A DNA stretch of 64,000 nucleotides from Brevibacillus agri (lineage in GTDB: Bacteria > Bacillota > Bacilli > Brevibacillales > Brevibacillaceae): assembly GCF_004117055.1 (NCBI RefSeq), contig NZ_CP026363.1:788001-852000 (forward strand), in the 5' to 3' direction. Position numbers and translations under genes: made by a program. The notes under the pieces are model-generated. The model was not told where the DNA came from, ran no database searches, and was given only the letters and a program-made list of their open reading frames with translations. The stretch's first letter is position 1, and each line of letters starts with the position of its first letter. Shown here one piece after another: positions 40,629 to 49,681 of the stretch.

Positions 40629-42256
40629 ATGAAGTCGATTGTTGAGATTGCCAAGGCAGCAGGTATCGATGAACAGGATCTGGAGCTTTACGGAAAGTAT
40701 AAGGCAAAAATCTCTGATGAGCTGTGGGATAAAATAAAAGACCGACCTGATGGCAAGCTGATTCTCGTTACCGCGATGAATCCCAATCCGGCAGGAGCAG
40801 GCAAGACGCTGACCACGATTGGTTTGTCGCAGTCGCTCAATCTGCTTGGAAAAAGGACGATTGCAGCGCTCCGCGAGCCGTCCCTTGGCCCGTGCATGGG
40901 GATAAAAGGAGGAGCTACCGGAAGCGGCAAGGCGCAAATCCTCCCTGCGGATGAAATCAATCTGCATTTTACTGGCGACATTCACGCCATTACCGCGGCG
41001 CACAATTTGCTTGCGGCGATGATCGACAACCATATTTTCCACGGCAATCCGCGGGGCATCAATCCGAAAAAAATGTCTGGAAACGGGCGATGGACATGAA
41101 CGACCGCGCGCTCAGAAATATCGTGGTCGGGCTGGGAGACGGCAACGGCATGACGCGCGAAGACGGCTTCATGATTACGACCGCATCGGAAATCATGGCG
41201 ATTTTGTGCCTGAGCGAGAACCTCGCCGACTTGCGCGAGCGGCTGAACCACATCATCATCGGCTACGATTTTGAAGACAAGCCAGTCCGGGCGGAAGAAA
41301 TCAATGCGGTCGAGGCGATGTGCGTACTGCTCAAGGAAGCGATCAAGCCAAACCTCGTGCAAACGATTGAGGGCACGCCAGTCATCGTCCACGGTGGTCC
41401 GTTTGCGAATATCGCGCACGGATGCAGCAGCGTGATCGGCACGAAGACAGCCTTGAAGCTGGCCGACTACGTCGTAACGGAAGCGGGCTTCGGCGCTGAC
41501 CTGGGCGCGGAGAAGTTTTTTGACATCAAGTGCAGAAAAGCCGGGCTGACGCCATCGGCAGCAGTCGTGGTCATTACCGTGCGTTCCTTGAAGTACAACG
41601 CCGGAATCAAAGTGCCGGATTTGGCCGAAGAAAACCTCGCCGCATTGGAAAAAGGCTTCGCCAACGTGCGTCGCCATCTGGAAAACTTGCAGAAGTTCGG
41701 CGTGCCGGCGGTTGTAGCGATCAACCATTTTGCCACTGATACCCAAGCGGAGATCGACGCAGTCATGGCGCTGTGCCAGGAGGCAGGTGCCGAGGCGGCG
41801 CTGTCCAAGGCGTGGGCAGAAGGCGGAGAAGGCGCAATCGAACTGGCGAAAAAAGTGACGCGCGCGGCAGAGCGCCCTGGGCAATTCCGCTTTTTGTACG
41901 AAGAAGACCTCGGCGTGAAGGAAAAGATTGAGACGGTGGTCAAAGAAATTTACCGCGGCTCCGGGGTAGTCTTTTCGTCGCTGGCGACAAAAACGATCCA
42001 GAAGGTAGAGGAAATGGGGCTGTCCCATCTGCCTGTGTGCATGGCGAAGACGCCGTACTCCTTTACAGATCGGGCCGATCAGCTTGGCGCCCCTGTCGGT
42101 TTTACCATTCAGGTGAGCGAAGTGCGGATTTCGGCAGGAGCAGGCTTCATCGTCGCCTTGACCGGAAGCCTGGTGACGATGCCGGGACTCCCGAAGAAAC
42201 CTGCGGCCGAATCGCTGTATGTGGATGAGCACGGCCACGTGGAAGGGCTGAGCTAA
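40629..42256 (+). pseudogene. fhs: Formate-tetrahydrofolate ligase gene with a one-base frameshift
   Basis: The frame from ATG 40629 (GGGAGG upstream) is normal FTHFS through the P-loop ([20 protein letters not shown]) and [10 protein letters not shown], then ends at 41099 after a wrong-phase tail. The rest runs in the next phase ([20 protein letters not shown] to the end) up to TAA 42254. One extra base just after the A-run near 41070 would restore the expected I-V-W-K-R. Together the parts cover the full family length. The enzyme makes 10-formyl-THF from formate and ATP. Either a true null mutation or a sequencing error. Confidence 0.85.
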
Positions 42257-42315: not shown

Positions 42316-42436
42316 CGATTTTTTCGCAATTATTTCGCAGAAAGTAGTTTACTTGTCAAACAATTTGGGTAAAGATTTTGTGTGGAAAAAAATCCAAGCC
42401 ATTATTTTAAAGTTAACCCACATTTTTCCGATGTTG

Positions 42437-42445
42437 TGCTATAGT
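42437..42445 (+). promoter_or_regulatory. Probable extended -10 promoter for the riboswitch-chemoreceptor transcript
   Basis: TGCTATAGT is an extended -10 element about 30 bases before the riboswitch aptamer. No strong -35 at 17 bases. Confidence 0.45.
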
Positions 42446-42469: not shown

Positions 42470-42575
42470 AAAATGACAAAGGCAAACCTGTTGAAAGGCA
42501 GGGACGCAAAGCCACGGGTCTAAGGCAAGCAGAGCGCATCTTCTGCTGCTACGATAGCCGGGTTGCCATGCCGTA
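42470..42575 (+). ncRNA. Cyclic-di-GMP-I riboswitch (GEMM) aptamer
   Basis: The core GGCAAACCTGTTGAAAGGCA (from 42481) is followed by the invariant GGGACGCAAAGCC and, after a variable stem (GCAAGCAGAGC...GCTGCT), by CGATAGCCGGGTTGCC. This is the full GEMM class I consensus, with the tetraloop GAAA docking into the second stem. By family knowledge it binds the second messenger c-di-GMP. It sits in the leader of a methyl-accepting chemotaxis gene, upstream of a terminator-like stem. Confidence 0.93.
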
Positions 42576-42582
42576 CACGTAA

Positions 42583-42612
42583 GAAGGCTGTCCGGGTGGC
42601 AGTCTTTTTTGT
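42583..42612 (+). terminator. Riboswitch expression platform: intrinsic terminator
   Basis: AAGGCTGTCC pairs with GGCAGTCTT (two G-U pairs allowed), with the T-run at 42605-42610. It lies between the aptamer and the chemoreceptor start. Whether ligand turns the gene on or off cannot be told by eye. Confidence 0.7.
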
Positions 42613-42643
42613 TGCCAAAAAAAGATAGGAGGTACAGCGTGAG

Positions 42644-44617
42644 ATGGAATCCAGTTTGAAGAAAAAGCTGATCGTCGTCATGTGCCTGCTCTTGATTGTC
42701 AGCTTGGGTACGGTCTGCGGTGCCAGCTACTACAGCTCGTCGCAGTTGCTGTCGTCCAGCCTGGACAAAGAAGCGGAACTTACGGCCAGCAATCTTTCCA
42801 TCAGAATCGACAGCTTTTTCCAAGAAAAAATCGGAATTGTTGAAACGATCGGAGAGATGATTTCCGCCGACAACAATTTCGACCATGACTTGAAGCTGAT
42901 TCAGGAGGCGCAGAAGAAAAACCCCGAGTTTGAGACGTTTTTCTTTTCCTATGACCTGAGCGGCAAAAAAGTCATCAACTTCAAGGGCGAGGAGACGAAC
43001 CCGTCTGATCGTCCGCATTTTCAGGAGGCAGGACGAGGCGAGGGGAAAATCATCGTTTCCGAGCCGGTCGTGTCGCAGCGGACAGGCAACTACATCGTGA
43101 CGATCATCGTTCCGCTGATGAAGGACAATCGCCAATACGGCTATGTCGGTTCGACCATTCCGATCAACGAGATTCAGAAGACGGTTTCCGAGGAGAAGTT
43201 CGGACATAGTGGCTATGCCTTTTTGGTGAGCAAAAAAGGAACGTATATTTGGCATCCGAACAGCGAAGTCATTTTGAAGCAGTCGGTGCTCGACAGCAAT
43301 ATTCCTGAGTTGAAAACCGCCTTTGAAGCAACGGCACAAGGCGGCCGCGGAGTCATTCAATACGAAGAGGGACAAGCGGCGCAATTCGCCTCCTACGCTT
43401 CGACCAGATTGAACTGGGGAGTGTTCATCACTGCTCCGGCCAAAGACCTGCACGCTCCGGTCAACGAACTGTCGATCAAGCTACTGGCTATTTCCTTGGT
43501 CGTTCTGGCGGTGGGCATCGTCTTCGTGTACTGGCTGTCGGTTCGTTTGGTTCGACCGATCCAGCGTCTGAACCAGGCCGTCAATGTCGTCGCCCAGGGC
43601 AATCTCACAGAGACGGTCACGGTGGCCGGAAAAGATGAGATCGCAGTGCTTTCCCGCGACTTCAACCAGACCGTCTCGCACTTGAAAGGCTTGATCGAAG
43701 GCGTGTCGCAATCGTCGGAGCAGGTGCTGCGCTTTACGCATGAAGTGTCGGCAGGAATTGAACACGCGACCGAAAACGTAAACCGGATCGGGACGTCAAT
43801 CAACCAGATTGCCAGCGGGGCCGAGGCACAGGCTACCAGCTCCAAGGACGTCGCCTTGTCCATGAATGACATGGCGGCGGGGATTGTGAAAATTGCAGAG
43901 ACATCCGCGCATGTGTCCGAAGCGGCGCGCGAGGCATCGGATCAGGCCGAGCAAGGCGCAGCAGTCGTCGAGCAGGCCGTCCGGCAAATGGGCAGCATCG
44001 GAGAGGGCACGACCAGAGCGGCTGAAGCCATTGAGCGCTTGAACAGCCGATCCAAGGAGATCGAAGGGATTCTCGATACGATCAGCCAGTTAACCTCGCA
44101 AATCAACCTGCTTGCGCTCAACGCGTCGATTGAGGCAGCGCGGGCTGGCGAGCACGGCCGCGGCTTTGCCGTCGTGGCGGGAGAAGTGAAAAATCTGGCG
44201 CATCAATCCGAGGAGTCGGCTGCGAAAATCGCGGCGCTGATCGGGGAAATCCAGCAGGATACCCGCCACGCGGTAGAAGTGATGAACACCGGCAATCGCG
44301 AGGCGCAGGAAGGCATTTCGATGATCGAAGAGGTGCGGGATATTTTCGCGCATATTTTGGAATCGTCGCGCAATGTTGCCGCCCATATTTTGGAGGTGTC
44401 GGCGGCATCGGAGGAAATGTCTGCAGGCTCTGAGCAGGTGAGCGCCTCGGTCGACGAAATGTACAACATTGCCAAGCTTGCCTCGGAAGACGCGCAGAAG
44501 GTCGTGGAGGCCACGGCCGAACAGTTGCAAGCCATTCAGGACATTGCCCGTTCGGTCGAGCAGTTGAACACGGTCACGGAGGAGTTGCAGCAGGGCGTAG
44601 GCAAGTTCACCTTGTAA
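42644..44617 (+). CDS. Methyl-accepting chemotaxis protein with an extracellular Cache-type domain
   Basis: 657 residues from ATG 42644 (AGGAGG 11 bases upstream). First membrane helix 8-30, a Cache-type double sensor domain (about 37-280; DRPHFQEAGRGEGKI and WHPNSEVI are typical), second helix near 285-305, HAMP (VRPIQRLNQAVNVVAQGNL), then a long coiled-coil signalling domain with the hairpin tip QINLLALNASIEAARAGEHG that binds CheA/CheW. The ligand is unknown, probably a small acid or amine. Under a c-di-GMP riboswitch, so receptor supply is tied to the motile/sessile state. Confidence 0.93.
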   Translation: MESSLKKKLIVVMCLLLIVSLGTVCGASYYSSSQLLSSSLDKEAELTASNLSIRIDSFFQEKIGIVETIGEMISADNNFDHDLKLIQEAQKKNPEFETFFFSYDLSGKKVINFKGEETNPSDRPHFQEAGRGEGKIIVSEPVVSQRTGNYIVTIIVPLMKDNRQYGYVGSTIPINEIQKTVSEEKFGHSGYAFLVSKKGTYIWHPNSEVILKQSVLDSNIPELKTAFEATAQGGRGVIQYEEGQAAQFASYASTRLNWGVFITAPAKDLHAPVNELSIKLLAISLVVLAVGIVFVYWLSVRLVRPIQRLNQAVNVVAQGNLTETVTVAGKDEIAVLSRDFNQTVSHLKGLIEGVSQSSEQVLRFTHEVSAGIEHATENVNRIGTSINQIASGAEAQATSSKDVALSMNDMAAGIVKIAETSAHVSEAAREASDQAEQGAAVVEQAVRQMGSIGEGTTRAAEAIERLNSRSKEIEGILDTISQLTSQINLLALNASIEAARAGEHGRGFAVVAGEVKNLAHQSEESAAKIAALIGEIQQDTRHAVEVMNTGNREAQEGISMIEEVRDIFAHILESSRNVAAHILEVSAASEEMSAGSEQVSASVDEMYNIAKLASEDAQKVVEATAEQLQAIQDIARSVEQLNTVTEELQQGVGKFTL

Positions 44618-44739
44618 GACCTTGTAAGGCTAAAGCCCGTCCCTGGTTAAAGGGGGGATGCCATGTAAGGGATGAGACAGCTCGAAACAGCAGATGGGCA
44701 TGAGACAGACTGATCGACAATCGGGAGGAGAAGAAACTA

Positions 44740-45597
44740 ATGAAAAAGTGGACAAAAAGAATGATGGCGAGCGCGCTCGCTGCAACGATGCTGATGACTG
44801 GAACCGGAGCGTTTGCTGCTACTACAGGCGCGCAAACCGGGCAGACCGCAGCAGTGGAAGCGGTCAAAAAACAGGAAAACAAACAGTTTGAGTCCCGCCT
44901 CGACGAGATTATCGCACGGGGATACATTCTCGTGGGCACACCGGGCGACTACAAGCCGTTCACATATTTGAACCCGAAAACGAACGAATTTGAAGGCTAC
45001 GACATCGACGCGATGAAAGAGTTTGCGAAAAGCCTTGGAGTAGAAGCGCGCTTCGTGCAAACCTCCTGGCCGACGCTGATGGACGATCTGCTGGCGAACA
45101 AATTTGACATCGCGGTCGGCGGCGTGACCCGCAACACCGATCGCCAGAAAAAAGCGCACATGGGCGATCCGTACATCGAGTTCGGAAAAGCTCCGCTGAT
45201 TCGCGTGCAGGACAAGGACAAGTACAAAAGCCTGGAAGACATCAATAAAAAAGAAGTGCGCATTGGCGTGAATCCGGGCGGTACCAACGAACAGTTCGTG
45301 CGCGACCATTTGAAAAACGCTACCGTTACTGTCGTGCAAAACAACCTGGACATCCCTGGCCTTGTCGCCAACGGCACATACGATGTGATGATTACCGACA
45401 CGATCGAAGCCATGGTGTATTCCAAAGCCGATTCCCGCCTGTACGCGGCTCTGACGGACAAGCCGTTTACCCGCAGCGAAAAAGCGTACATGATTCCGCG
45501 CGGCGACTTTATTTTCGCCAGCTATCTCGATGTCTGGATGGACGAAATGAAGCTGCAAGGGAAATTCGACGAGCTGTTCCATAAATGGGTAAAATAA
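44740..45597 (+). CDS. Secreted solute-binding-fold protein resembling cyclohexadienyl dehydratase (PheC)
   Basis: 285 residues from ATG 44740 behind GGGAGGAG. Type I signal peptide (MKKWTKRMMASALAATMLMT, cut near AFA-AT); no lipobox Cys, unlike most Gram-positive binding proteins. The fold is family 3 solute-binding, with features shared with PheC: VGTPGDYKPFTYLNP, QTSWPTLMDDLLANKFDIAV, VNPGGTNEQFVRDHLKNATV, ITDTIEAMVY and SEKAYMIPRGD. It could be a secreted prephenate/arogenate dehydratase or a soluble binding protein feeding the chemoreceptor. No ABC permease or ATPase genes are near. Confidence 0.75.
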   Translation: MKKWTKRMMASALAATMLMTGTGAFAATTGAQTGQTAAVEAVKKQENKQFESRLDEIIARGYILVGTPGDYKPFTYLNPKTNEFEGYDIDAMKEFAKSLGVEARFVQTSWPTLMDDLLANKFDIAVGGVTRNTDRQKKAHMGDPYIEFGKAPLIRVQDKDKYKSLEDINKKEVRIGVNPGGTNEQFVRDHLKNATVTVVQNNLDIPGLVANGTYDVMITDTIEAMVYSKADSRLYAALTDKPFTRSEKAYMIPRGDFIFASYLDVWMDEMKLQGKFDELFHKWVK

Positions 45598-45631: not shown

Positions 45632-45677
45632 GAAAGCAGTCCTGTCTGGATGATCCGGGCAGGGCTGCTTTTGTTTT
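45632..45677 (+). terminator. Terminator of the PheC-like gene
   Basis: AAAGCAGTCCTG (45633-45644) pairs with CAGGGCTGCTTT (45660-45671, one G-U pair), followed by TTGTTTTTG. Confidence 0.85.
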
Positions 45678-48823: not shown

Positions 48824-49681
48824 GGATGTGTCTGAAAACTCATTATTGAGTTAGTTTAAAGATGGACGCGACATATACAAACGCTAGGAATGATTTGGCC
48901 AGCTTGTCGTAACGAGTAGCGATTCGTCGAAAATGTTTGATTTTATTGAAGAAGCACTCCACCAAGTGCCGTTCTTTATAGCGGTACCAATCCACTTTCC
49001 AAGGATTTTTATTATTCGCTTTAGGCGGGATGGTGTACGCTGCCTGCTTAGCCGTAATCCAATGCCGAATGCCTTCTGAGCCGTAGGCTTTGTCACCAAC
49101 AATATGGCTTCCCGTAAGATCAAACCCTTGAAGCAAATTGATCGCTGGAACGGAATCATAGACGTGCCCCCCCGTGAGAAGAAAAGCGAGGGGATTCCCT
49201 AATCCATCGACGACGGTATGAAGTTTGGTTGTCTTTCCGCCACGGCTGACGCCTATGTGCTGATTTACTTCGTGTCCTTCTGCGTTTTTTTAGCACCCGC
49301 ACTGTGTTGATGAGCTTTGACCGATGTAGAATCGATGCTCAAGTTTTCAAAGTCAGGTTCTACGTGAAGAGCTTGGAAGATGGCGACAAGTAATCCGGTA
49401 TCTCTCCACTTGCAGAAGCGACTGTAGACCGTTTTCCATGAACCATAACGTTCTTCCGGCAAATCTCGCCAAGCCGCACCACTTCGGGCAATCCAAAGAA
49501 TGGCATTAAACATGGTACGATTACTTAATTTGGACGGACGTCCTGTTCGATAGGGGGGGAACATGTCCTGAATTTGTTCCCACTGTTCATCGTTTATTTC
49601 GTACCGTCTTTGAATCATGCTCGTTGCTCCATTCGTTTTTCCTAAATCATACCACATTTTCTTTAGTTTTCAGACACGTCC
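48824..49681 (-). mobile_element. Complete IS5-family (IS427-group-like) insertion sequence, 858 bp
   Basis: Terminal inverted repeats GGATGTGTCTGAAAACT (48824-48840) and AGTTTTCAGACACGTCC (49665-49681), one mismatch. Flanked by a TA duplication (48822-48823 and 49682-49683) within CTAG. It codes for two overlapping frames joined by a frameshift. Removing it with one TA rebuilds an open reading frame in the target. Confidence 0.92.
48843..49619 (-). CDS. IS5-family transposase made by -1 frameshifting (ORF A + ORF B)
   Basis: ORF A starts at ATG 49619 (MIQRRYEINDEQWEQIQDMF) and holds the first catalytic Asp in LSIDSTSVKAHQ; it ends at 49265. ORF B, in the -1 phase, continues from AEGHEVNQHIGVSRGGKTTK through the second Asp (HTVVDGLGNP) and the final Glu region (YKERHLVECFF) to TAA 48843. 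The switch most likely happens on the seven-A run near 49285-49291. Full length about 258 residues, normal for the group. Intact, so probably active. Confidence 0.85.

What the first reader, a model, noticed from the sequence alone, without database searches (positions are those of the whole stretch)
42470..45597. c-di-GMP riboswitch controlling a chemoreceptor next to a PheC/binding-protein-like gene
The GEMM-I aptamer and a terminator stem precede an MCP gene; the next gene encodes a secreted solute-binding-fold protein without transporter partners. The layout suggests that a periplasm-free Gram-positive cell uses c-di-GMP to set the level of one receptor and possibly of its extracellular ligand-binding or ligand-making partner.
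Basis: partly seen in the sequence, partly recalled or inferred. Interest (0 to 1): 0.6.

Follow-up and report, generated by a model that had tools for sequence, protein, structure and literature searches.

The report
c-di-GMP switch on receptor-enzyme operon
A bacterium seems to use an RNA switch that senses the signal molecule c-di-GMP to control, in one go, a chemotaxis receptor and an exported enzyme that may make the very compound the receptor detects, which would give a testable role to a puzzling class of exported enzymes.

Summary
Window 42472-42571 is a class-I c-di-GMP aptamer (RF01051/RF03167) followed by a terminator hairpin, a dCache-HAMP chemoreceptor gene and, 122 bp on, a secreted SBP-fold protein that keeps all nine active-site residues of cyclohexadienyl dehydratase (CDT, PheC). 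It is CDT-like rather than a transport SBP. The order aptamer-MCP-CDT recurs in 20 of 119 genomes examined; the MCP-CDT pair also occurs without the aptamer (5 of 25 pairs). No aptamer was found at stand-alone CDT genes. Between the genes lies a conserved SD-like element (AAAGGGGGGATGCC), also found upstream of oppA, probably an mRNA stabiliser. In the same bacterial family 70 of 97 c-di-GMP-I aptamers have an MCP among the first two genes, often paired with an enzyme. Best reading: high c-di-GMP shuts off a unit in which exported CDT turns prephenate/arogenate into phenylpyruvate/phenylalanine that the receptor senses. Shown: anatomy and conservation. Inferred: direction of switching, co-transcription, catalysis, ligand. 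A riboswitch-controlled MCP is known (Bc1-mcpE); I found no paper on the MCP-CDT operon in the open-access library searched.

The parts
42435..42445 (+). extended -10-like sequence TGTGCTATAGT, possible promoter of the operon
   Evidence: read by eye (position); a similar TATAGT stands upstream in some relatives; not listed by the promoter scan
42472..42571 (+). c-di-GMP-I riboswitch aptamer
   Evidence: RF03167 70.8 bits; RF01051 81.3 bits; own model R1 94.8 bits; the window is one of the sequences R1 was built from
42553..42559 (+). aptamer 3' strand GATAGCC, complementary to the terminator's 5' arm (predicted antiterminator strand)
42583..42610 (+). intrinsic terminator hairpin plus U-run (expression platform)
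   Evidence: sequence kept in relatives
42624..42632 (+). ribosome-binding site of the MCP gene (GATAGGAGG)
   Evidence: read by eye; position
42644..44617 (+). chemoreceptor (MCP): dCache_1 + HAMP + MCPsignal
   Evidence: sensor-domain fold
44649..44662 (+). conserved SD-like intergenic element AAAGGGGGGATGCC, probable STAB-SD-type mRNA stabiliser
   Evidence: STAB-SD concept from PMC4113751
44740..45597 (+). exported cyclohexadienyl dehydratase-like protein (PheC/CDT, SBP fold)
45632..45672 (+). strong intrinsic terminator closing the operon
   Evidence: 19 pairs, then T-rich tail

Best explanation
A class-I c-di-GMP riboswitch controls a two-gene operon by transcription attenuation. With little c-di-GMP the aptamer's 3' strand (GAUAGCC) pairs with the terminator's 5' arm (GGCUGUC) and transcription runs on; with c-di-GMP bound the aptamer keeps that strand, the terminator forms and the operon is off (direction predicted, about 0.65). 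The read-through message encodes a dCache chemoreceptor and an exported CDT. The CDT part of the message is probably stabilised by an SD-like element, so that the enzyme is made in excess. Outside the cell the CDT converts prephenate and/or arogenate, released by other cells, into phenylpyruvate and/or phenylalanine. The receptor senses the product or a related carboxylate, so swimming cells detect a precursor that their receptor cannot read itself. Shown: parts, order, conservation, active-site residues. Inferred: direction, co-transcription, catalysis, substrate, ligand.
For: Aptamer. G10, A37 and C95 of the aptamer, which I assign to G20, A47 and C92 of Vc2 (the first two by the 27-nt spacing given for Bc1 in PMC11218506; C95 by position in the 3' strand only), are invariant in 20 of 20 aligned aptamers. 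Terminator-like hairpin in 18 of 20 MCP-CDT loci, with a 7-bp match of its 5' arm to the aptamer 3' strand in 13 of the 18; match score 16.7 against 11.7 for shuffled arms. Aptamer-MCP-CDT order in 20 of 119 genomes; aptamer at 20 of 25 MCP-CDT pairs, at 0 of 7 stand-alone CDT loci (one match at E 0.27 not counted) and 0 of 72 loci without an MCP (some loci are the same in both). In G012, G025 and G101 the unit lies elsewhere, yet intact. Nine of nine PaCDT active-site residues (list from PMC10520331) kept in the window protein. The receptor pocket region is strongly conserved among partners. A second aptamer in the genome precedes a gamma-glutamyltranspeptidase-MCP pair, kept in 19 of 39 family genomes.
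Against: Tyr at position 177, as in AncCDT-3, which had very low dehydratase activity (PMC7683729), so the protein may be a poor enzyme. No exported chorismate mutase model hit in this genome, so prephenate must come from elsewhere. The pre-terminator fold pairs 7 or more nt of the arm with the aptamer in only 11 of 18 loci, and 5 of 18 show none; the full-length minimum-energy fold shows the terminator in 4 of 18. No such antiterminator support at GGT-MCP loci. MCP-CDT pairs exist without the aptamer (5 of 25). The related Bc1 did not respond in vivo, and Bc1/Bc2 are described as ON-type.
Confidence: 0.42

Rival explanations
1. The CDT-like protein is not (or hardly) an enzyme but a secreted ligand-binding co-receptor: it binds prephenate, phenylpyruvate or a similar acid and docks on the dCache domain, as SBPs dock on chemoreceptors in other bacteria.
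For: SBP fold; Tyr177 as in the weak ancestor AncCDT-3 (PMC7683729); the element before the gene is shared with an oligopeptide SBP gene.
Against: All nine active-site residues incl. the general acid Glu kept; no lipid anchor, so the protein would diffuse away from a Gram-positive cell (15 of 15 MCP-linked rows without lipobox, duplicates included).
Confidence: 0.25
2. The riboswitch is an ON switch, or is locked and hardly responds, as reported for Bc1-mcpE.
For: Bc1 bound c-di-GMP but expression did not change, and Bc1/Bc2 are described as ON-type (PMC11218506); folding support for the antiterminator is incomplete.
Against: The terminator does not overlap the aptamer, and the conserved alternative pairing competes with the aptamer, which fits OFF.
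Confidence: 0.3
3. The genes are neighbours but work apart: the CDT serves phenylalanine supply or scavenging (overflow pathway) and the receptor senses something unrelated.
For: CDT genes without MCP are common (72 of 80 loci); second CDT copies next to the FTHFS gene lack an MCP (L083, L084).
Against: The pair is kept through relocation and across Brevibacillus, Paenibacillus and G101; an ordinary prephenate dehydratase gene is present, so an exported one is not needed for Phe synthesis.
Confidence: 0.2

Closest known systems
Bc1-mcpE, c-di-GMP-I riboswitch of Bacillus thuringiensis/cereus group (PMC11218506; abstract and passages read)
   Same: c-di-GMP-I aptamer and terminator(s) in the leader of a chemoreceptor gene of a Gram-positive
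   Different: Bc1 has two terminators in a long platform and is described as ON or unresponsive; here one short hairpin 11 nt after the aptamer, and an exported CDT gene follows the receptor; the passages read name no second gene
Cyclohexadienyl dehydratase PaCDT / AncCDT-3 / AncCDT-5 (PMC7683729; passages read)
   Same: SBP fold, nine of nine active-site residues; closest solved sequence is AncCDT-3/L188 (5jos)
   Different: Tyr at 177 and Leu at 188 as in AncCDT-3/L188, not Gln177 as in the later enzymes; Gram-positive secreted protein in a chemoreceptor operon
Exported CM-CDT fusion enzymes (PMC10520331; abstract and passages read)
   Same: exported CDT; those authors suggested a role in chemotaxis or signalling from gene neighbourhoods with transporters and SBPs
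   Different: fusions with chorismate mutase in proteobacteria; no chemoreceptor operon named in the passages read; here no CM domain and no exported CM hit in the genome
STAB-SD of cry3A mRNA (PMC4113751; passages read)
   Same: SD-like sequence in an untranslated region that does not start translation and protects the message
   Different: lies between two genes of an operon, not in a leader; core AAAGGGGGGATG; stabilisation not tested. The close likeness of the letters is from recall

Membership tests
c-di-GMP-I riboswitch (RF01051) | aptamer sequence and structure above the curated score | tested here: met
   81.3 bits against gathering 35
c-di-GMP-I riboswitch (RF01051) | ligand-contacting G20, A47, C92 (Vc2 numbers) | tested here: met
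   G10, A37, C95 invariant in 20 of 20 rows; G/A assigned by 27-nt spacing, C95 by position, so the third is less sure
c-di-GMP-I riboswitch (RF01051) | binds c-di-GMP and changes expression | not testable with these tools
   needs in-line probing and reporter assays
c-di-GMP-I-GGC variant (RF03167) | score above gathering | tested here: met
   70.8 against 59 bits
c-di-GMP-I-GGC variant (RF03167) | G in place of A47 (my reading of the name and of the model consensus) | tested here: not met
   consensus GACGCGAA, window GACGCAAA; so I do not file it as the variant
Chemoreceptor (MCP) | dCache sensor, HAMP and MCPsignal domains | tested here: met
   dCache fold
dCache_1AA amino-acid receptors | Y121, R126, W128, Y129, Y144, D173 (PctA numbers, PMC10104139) | tested here: not met
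   aligned to PctA: only R126 kept (Y129 is F); T, H, V, T replace Y121, W128, Y144, D173; columns
Cyclohexadienyl dehydratase (PheC/CDT) | nine active-site residues | tested here: met
   list from PMC10520331
Cyclohexadienyl dehydratase (PheC/CDT) | Gln177 of the efficient enzyme (second shell, not family-defining) | tested here: not met
   Tyr in the window and in 65 of 94 rows, Gln in 22
Cyclohexadienyl dehydratase (PheC/CDT) | prephenate/arogenate dehydratase activity | not testable with these tools
   needs enzyme assay
ABC-importer solute-binding protein of Gram-positives | lipobox anchor and transporter genes next to it | tested here: not met
   no lipobox; neighbours are MCP and DEAD helicase
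STAB-SD mRNA stabiliser | SD-like sequence in an untranslated region without its own gene start | tested here: met
   core conserved in 22 of 25 MCP-CDT intergenic regions; short frames read from it vary
STAB-SD mRNA stabiliser | blocks 5'-3' decay by binding 30S | not testable with these tools
   needs RNA 5'-end mapping and decay assays

The most novel reading that the evidence does not exclude
Brevibacillus and close kin hold a c-di-GMP riboswitch regulon of 'make-and-sense' units, each pairing a chemoreceptor with an enzyme (exported CDT, gamma-glutamyltranspeptidase, an acetyltransferase, an aldehyde dehydrogenase) that produces or removes the receptor's ligand. c-di-GMP switches whole taste channels, enzyme and receptor together, when cells leave the motile state. 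Exported CDTs then have a sensory, not biosynthetic, role, such as detecting lysed neighbours by leaked prephenate.
Probability: 0.3. Interest if true: 0.78.

Novelty: new variant of a known kind. Interest (0 to 1): 0.58.

Why it matters
What exported cyclohexadienyl dehydratases are for is an open question; a chemotaxis role was proposed from gene neighbourhoods (PMC10520331). A conserved receptor-CDT operon under a c-di-GMP switch makes that directly testable with one receptor domain and one enzyme. It would also show second-messenger control of chemosensory specificity at the RNA level in Gram-positives, and it suggests a general enzyme-plus-receptor operon design.

Tried and rejected
Rejected: (1) altered riboswitch ligand from the Rfam label GGC (A47-equivalent is A). 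(2) Intergenic element as a known RNA family: no Rfam match at E up to 1. (3) Intergenic element as a covarying hairpin: best-stem score 4.22 against 3.67 (sd 0.21) for shuffled partners, 5 of 500 shuffles as high; too weak to claim. (4) Element as a short leader ORF: frames read by eye differ in length and sequence. (5) Receptor as a canonical amino-acid sensor. (6) SigD-type promoter upstream: considered by eye, not kept in relatives. (7) A common antiterminator for all aptamer types: not supported at GGT-MCP loci. Fold comparison of the sensor domain gave dCache domains of mixed ligand classes and did not point to a ligand.

Literature: searches (open-access PMC subset only). Searches returned nothing; no title or abstract start in the listings named a CDT-chemoreceptor operon. 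No paper on the RF03167 subfamily was recognised.

Dropped rows: before the tree I left out L106, L106b, L117 and the duplicates L085, L081, L067, L083, and rows of 200 aa or less. One search does not list its weakest matches. Relatives are close kin, so counts are not independent.
Full report
What is there. The window lies in a 5.37-Mb Brevibacillus-type genome (genus inferred from named relatives). At 42472-42571 (+) Rfam finds a class-I c-di-GMP aptamer: RF03167 70.8 bits and RF01051 81.3 bits. The best-ranked subfamily is labelled GGC, but its consensus has G where this aptamer has A (GACGCGAA against GACGCAAA), so I treat it as an ordinary c-di-GMP-I aptamer. G10, A37 and C95 are invariant in all 20 aptamers I aligned. 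By the 27-nt spacing reported for Bc1 (PMC11218506) the first two correspond to G20 and A47 of Vc2; C95 as C92 rests on position only. The genome has 12 GGDEF matches, so c-di-GMP is presumably made.

Expression platform. A hairpin at 42583-42607 followed by U residues starts 11 nt after the aptamer. Its sequence is much the same in most relatives. A terminator-like hairpin was found by script in 18 of 20 MCP-CDT loci (L066 and L067 fell short). In 13 of these 18 the 5' arm can form 7 pairs with the aptamer's 3' strand (GAYAGCC with GGCUGUC). In the window the transcript up to that arm folds with 7 of 10 arm bases paired to the aptamer. Across the 18, 11 show 7 or more, two show 4, five show none; the full-length minimum-energy fold contains the terminator in 4 of 18. 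Shuffled arms score 11.7 against 16.7 observed, with 4.7% of shuffles at or above the observed mean. The GNAT-MCP aptamers show a weaker version of the same complementarity (13.5 against 11.7, 20% of shuffles), and GGT-MCP loci show none. I infer an OFF switch, with moderate confidence.

The two genes. The first encodes a 657-aa chemoreceptor with dCache_1, HAMP and MCPsignal; the predicted sensor domain (mean pLDDT 88.1) aligns with dCache domains (best Z 24.7, 3li9, rmsd 2.1 over 228 residues). The second, 122 bp on, encodes a 285-aa SBP-fold protein whose best solved relative is 5jos (E 2.6e-91), which PMC7683729 names AncCDT-3/L188. [quoted passage not shown] all nine are present here (Y71, W110, K150, N178, T182, N183, N202, T219, E223) and in 91 of 94 aligned rows (the exceptions are two fragments of one broken gene and one Phe for Tyr). 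Position 177 is Tyr, as in AncCDT-3, where it is reported to keep the general acid from its competent conformation (PMC7683729). Tyr is found in 65 of the 94 rows and Gln in 22, so it is common in this branch and does not by itself show inactivity. The protein has no lipobox or cysteine, and no MCP-linked row of 15 has a lipobox; duplicates are among these 15.

Receptor pocket. Aligned with PctA, the receptor keeps the arginine that binds the carboxylate in amino-acid receptors (R126; PMC10104139) but replaces Y121, W128, Y144 and D173 by T, H, V and T. These columns are almost unchanged among the 14 receptors aligned, so the partners probably share one ligand. The pattern suggests a carboxylate without an alpha-amino group, which fits phenylpyruvate better than phenylalanine. 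This is inference; no ligand was tested, and fold neighbours bind many classes.

Conservation of the unit. A search of 119 relatives found RF03167 hits in 82 and CDT-like matches in 60; the latter number includes distant SBPs. I read 29 loci with the closer CDT matches: the order aptamer-MCP-CDT is present in 20 genomes including our own. Nineteen of these are in the same family and one, G101, in another family of the class. In G012, G025 and G101 the flanking genes differ but the three-part unit is whole. Among 80 loci of named genomes 8 have an MCP just before the CDT: five Brevibacillus and three Paenibacillus (in L098 the MCP is split between frames). Four of the eight carry the aptamer; none of the other 72 do. 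Pooling both sets, 25 distinct MCP-CDT pairs were seen and 20 have the aptamer; those without are B. fulvus (L085/L104), G032 (L086, where my ORF scan found only part of the MCP), and L098, L100, L101. The pair is thus wider than the switch. In a tree of 87 CDT rows the MCP-linked label needs three changes, which could be one gain and two losses.

Intergenic element. The 122 bp contain AAAGGGGGGATGCC (44649-44662). Its core AGGGGGGATG is present in 22 of 25 MCP-CDT intergenic regions, including Paenibacillus. AAAGGGGGGATGC occurs in 26 of 26 genomes of the genus, 46 places against 3 for the reversed control pattern (my count). Of 33 loci read, 20 lie between an OppF-like ATPase gene and an OppA-like SBP gene (in a few the ORF scan named only one of the two), five before the CDT, eight elsewhere. 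No Rfam family matches. It looks like a Shine-Dalgarno sequence with no properly spaced gene start, about 90 nt upstream of genes whose products are presumably needed in quantity. STAB-SD elements, which bind 30S subunits and block RNase J1, are described in PMC4113751. The near identity to the cry3A element is from recall. No promoter-like site on the + strand falls in the gap in the window and no terminator-like hairpin was found there (eight relatives gave marginal 5-6 bp candidates). After the CDT there is a 19-pair terminator.

A wider pattern. In the 39 genomes of the family, RF01051 gives 97 hits in 33 genomes. Nineteen precede MCP-CDT. Of the other 78, 51 have an MCP among the first two open frames downstream, so 70 of 97 in all. 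The types, are: gamma-glutamyltranspeptidase then dCache MCP (19), GNAT-like protein then MCP (17; in three genomes a dCache diguanylate cyclase follows), aldehyde dehydrogenase then soluble MCP-like protein (8), MCP first (7). Our own genome has one each of the first two besides the window. Enzyme names come from Pfam/NCBIfam; the GNAT hit is weak (23.2 bits). Repeated pairing of an enzyme with a receptor behind the same sensor suggests that c-di-GMP controls whole sensing units. These genomes are close kin, so the independent observations are the operon types, not the 70 hits.

Mechanism and rivals. Prephenate dehydratase of the usual type is encoded elsewhere, so an exported CDT is not needed for phenylalanine synthesis; no exported-type chorismate mutase model hit was found. 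I therefore favour a sensory role: prephenate or arogenate from other cells is converted outside, and the receptor reads the product. The main rivals are a secreted binding protein that docks on the receptor, an ON or unresponsive switch as for Bc1, and unrelated functions. Each is testable as listed.

Known or new. c-di-GMP-I switches before MCP genes are known (Bc1-mcpE, PMC11218506). A chemotaxis role of exported CDTs has been proposed in print (PMC10520331, discussion passages). I found no paper on a chemoreceptor-CDT operon or on its c-di-GMP control in the open-access library; subscription papers were not searched. I rate it a new variant of a known kind.

Noticed in passing
L093:4361-8456 (own genome C1:897360-901456, - strand): A second c-di-GMP-I aptamer precedes gamma-glutamyltranspeptidase and a dCache MCP 86 bp apart; the same order is kept in 19 of 39 family genomes.
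   Followed up: partly
L092:3737-7815 (own genome C1:4767735 on): A third aptamer precedes a GNAT-like gene, an MCP and a dCache diguanylate cyclase, which would give feedback of c-di-GMP on its own synthesis.
   Followed up: partly
L198 and seven like loci: An aptamer precedes an aldehyde dehydrogenase and a soluble MCP-like protein in 8 family genomes; it recalls yfmT-yfmS of B. subtilis (recalled, not tested).
   Followed up: partly
window 44649-44662; L254 and 19 other loci: SD-like element AAAGGGGGGATGC shared between the MCP-CDT and OppF-OppA intergenic regions; 46 places against 3 for the reversed control in 26 genus genomes.
   Followed up: partly
window 40629-42256: The formate-tetrahydrofolate ligase gene is split into two frames near 41080, whereas relatives have one 542-aa frame; frameshift or sequencing error.
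   Followed up: partly
window 48843-49657: Two frames of an apparent IS transposase, read by eye.
   Followed up: no
G011:C1:1030625-1031485 (L088, L106): A broken CDT gene without MCP or aptamer.
   Followed up: no
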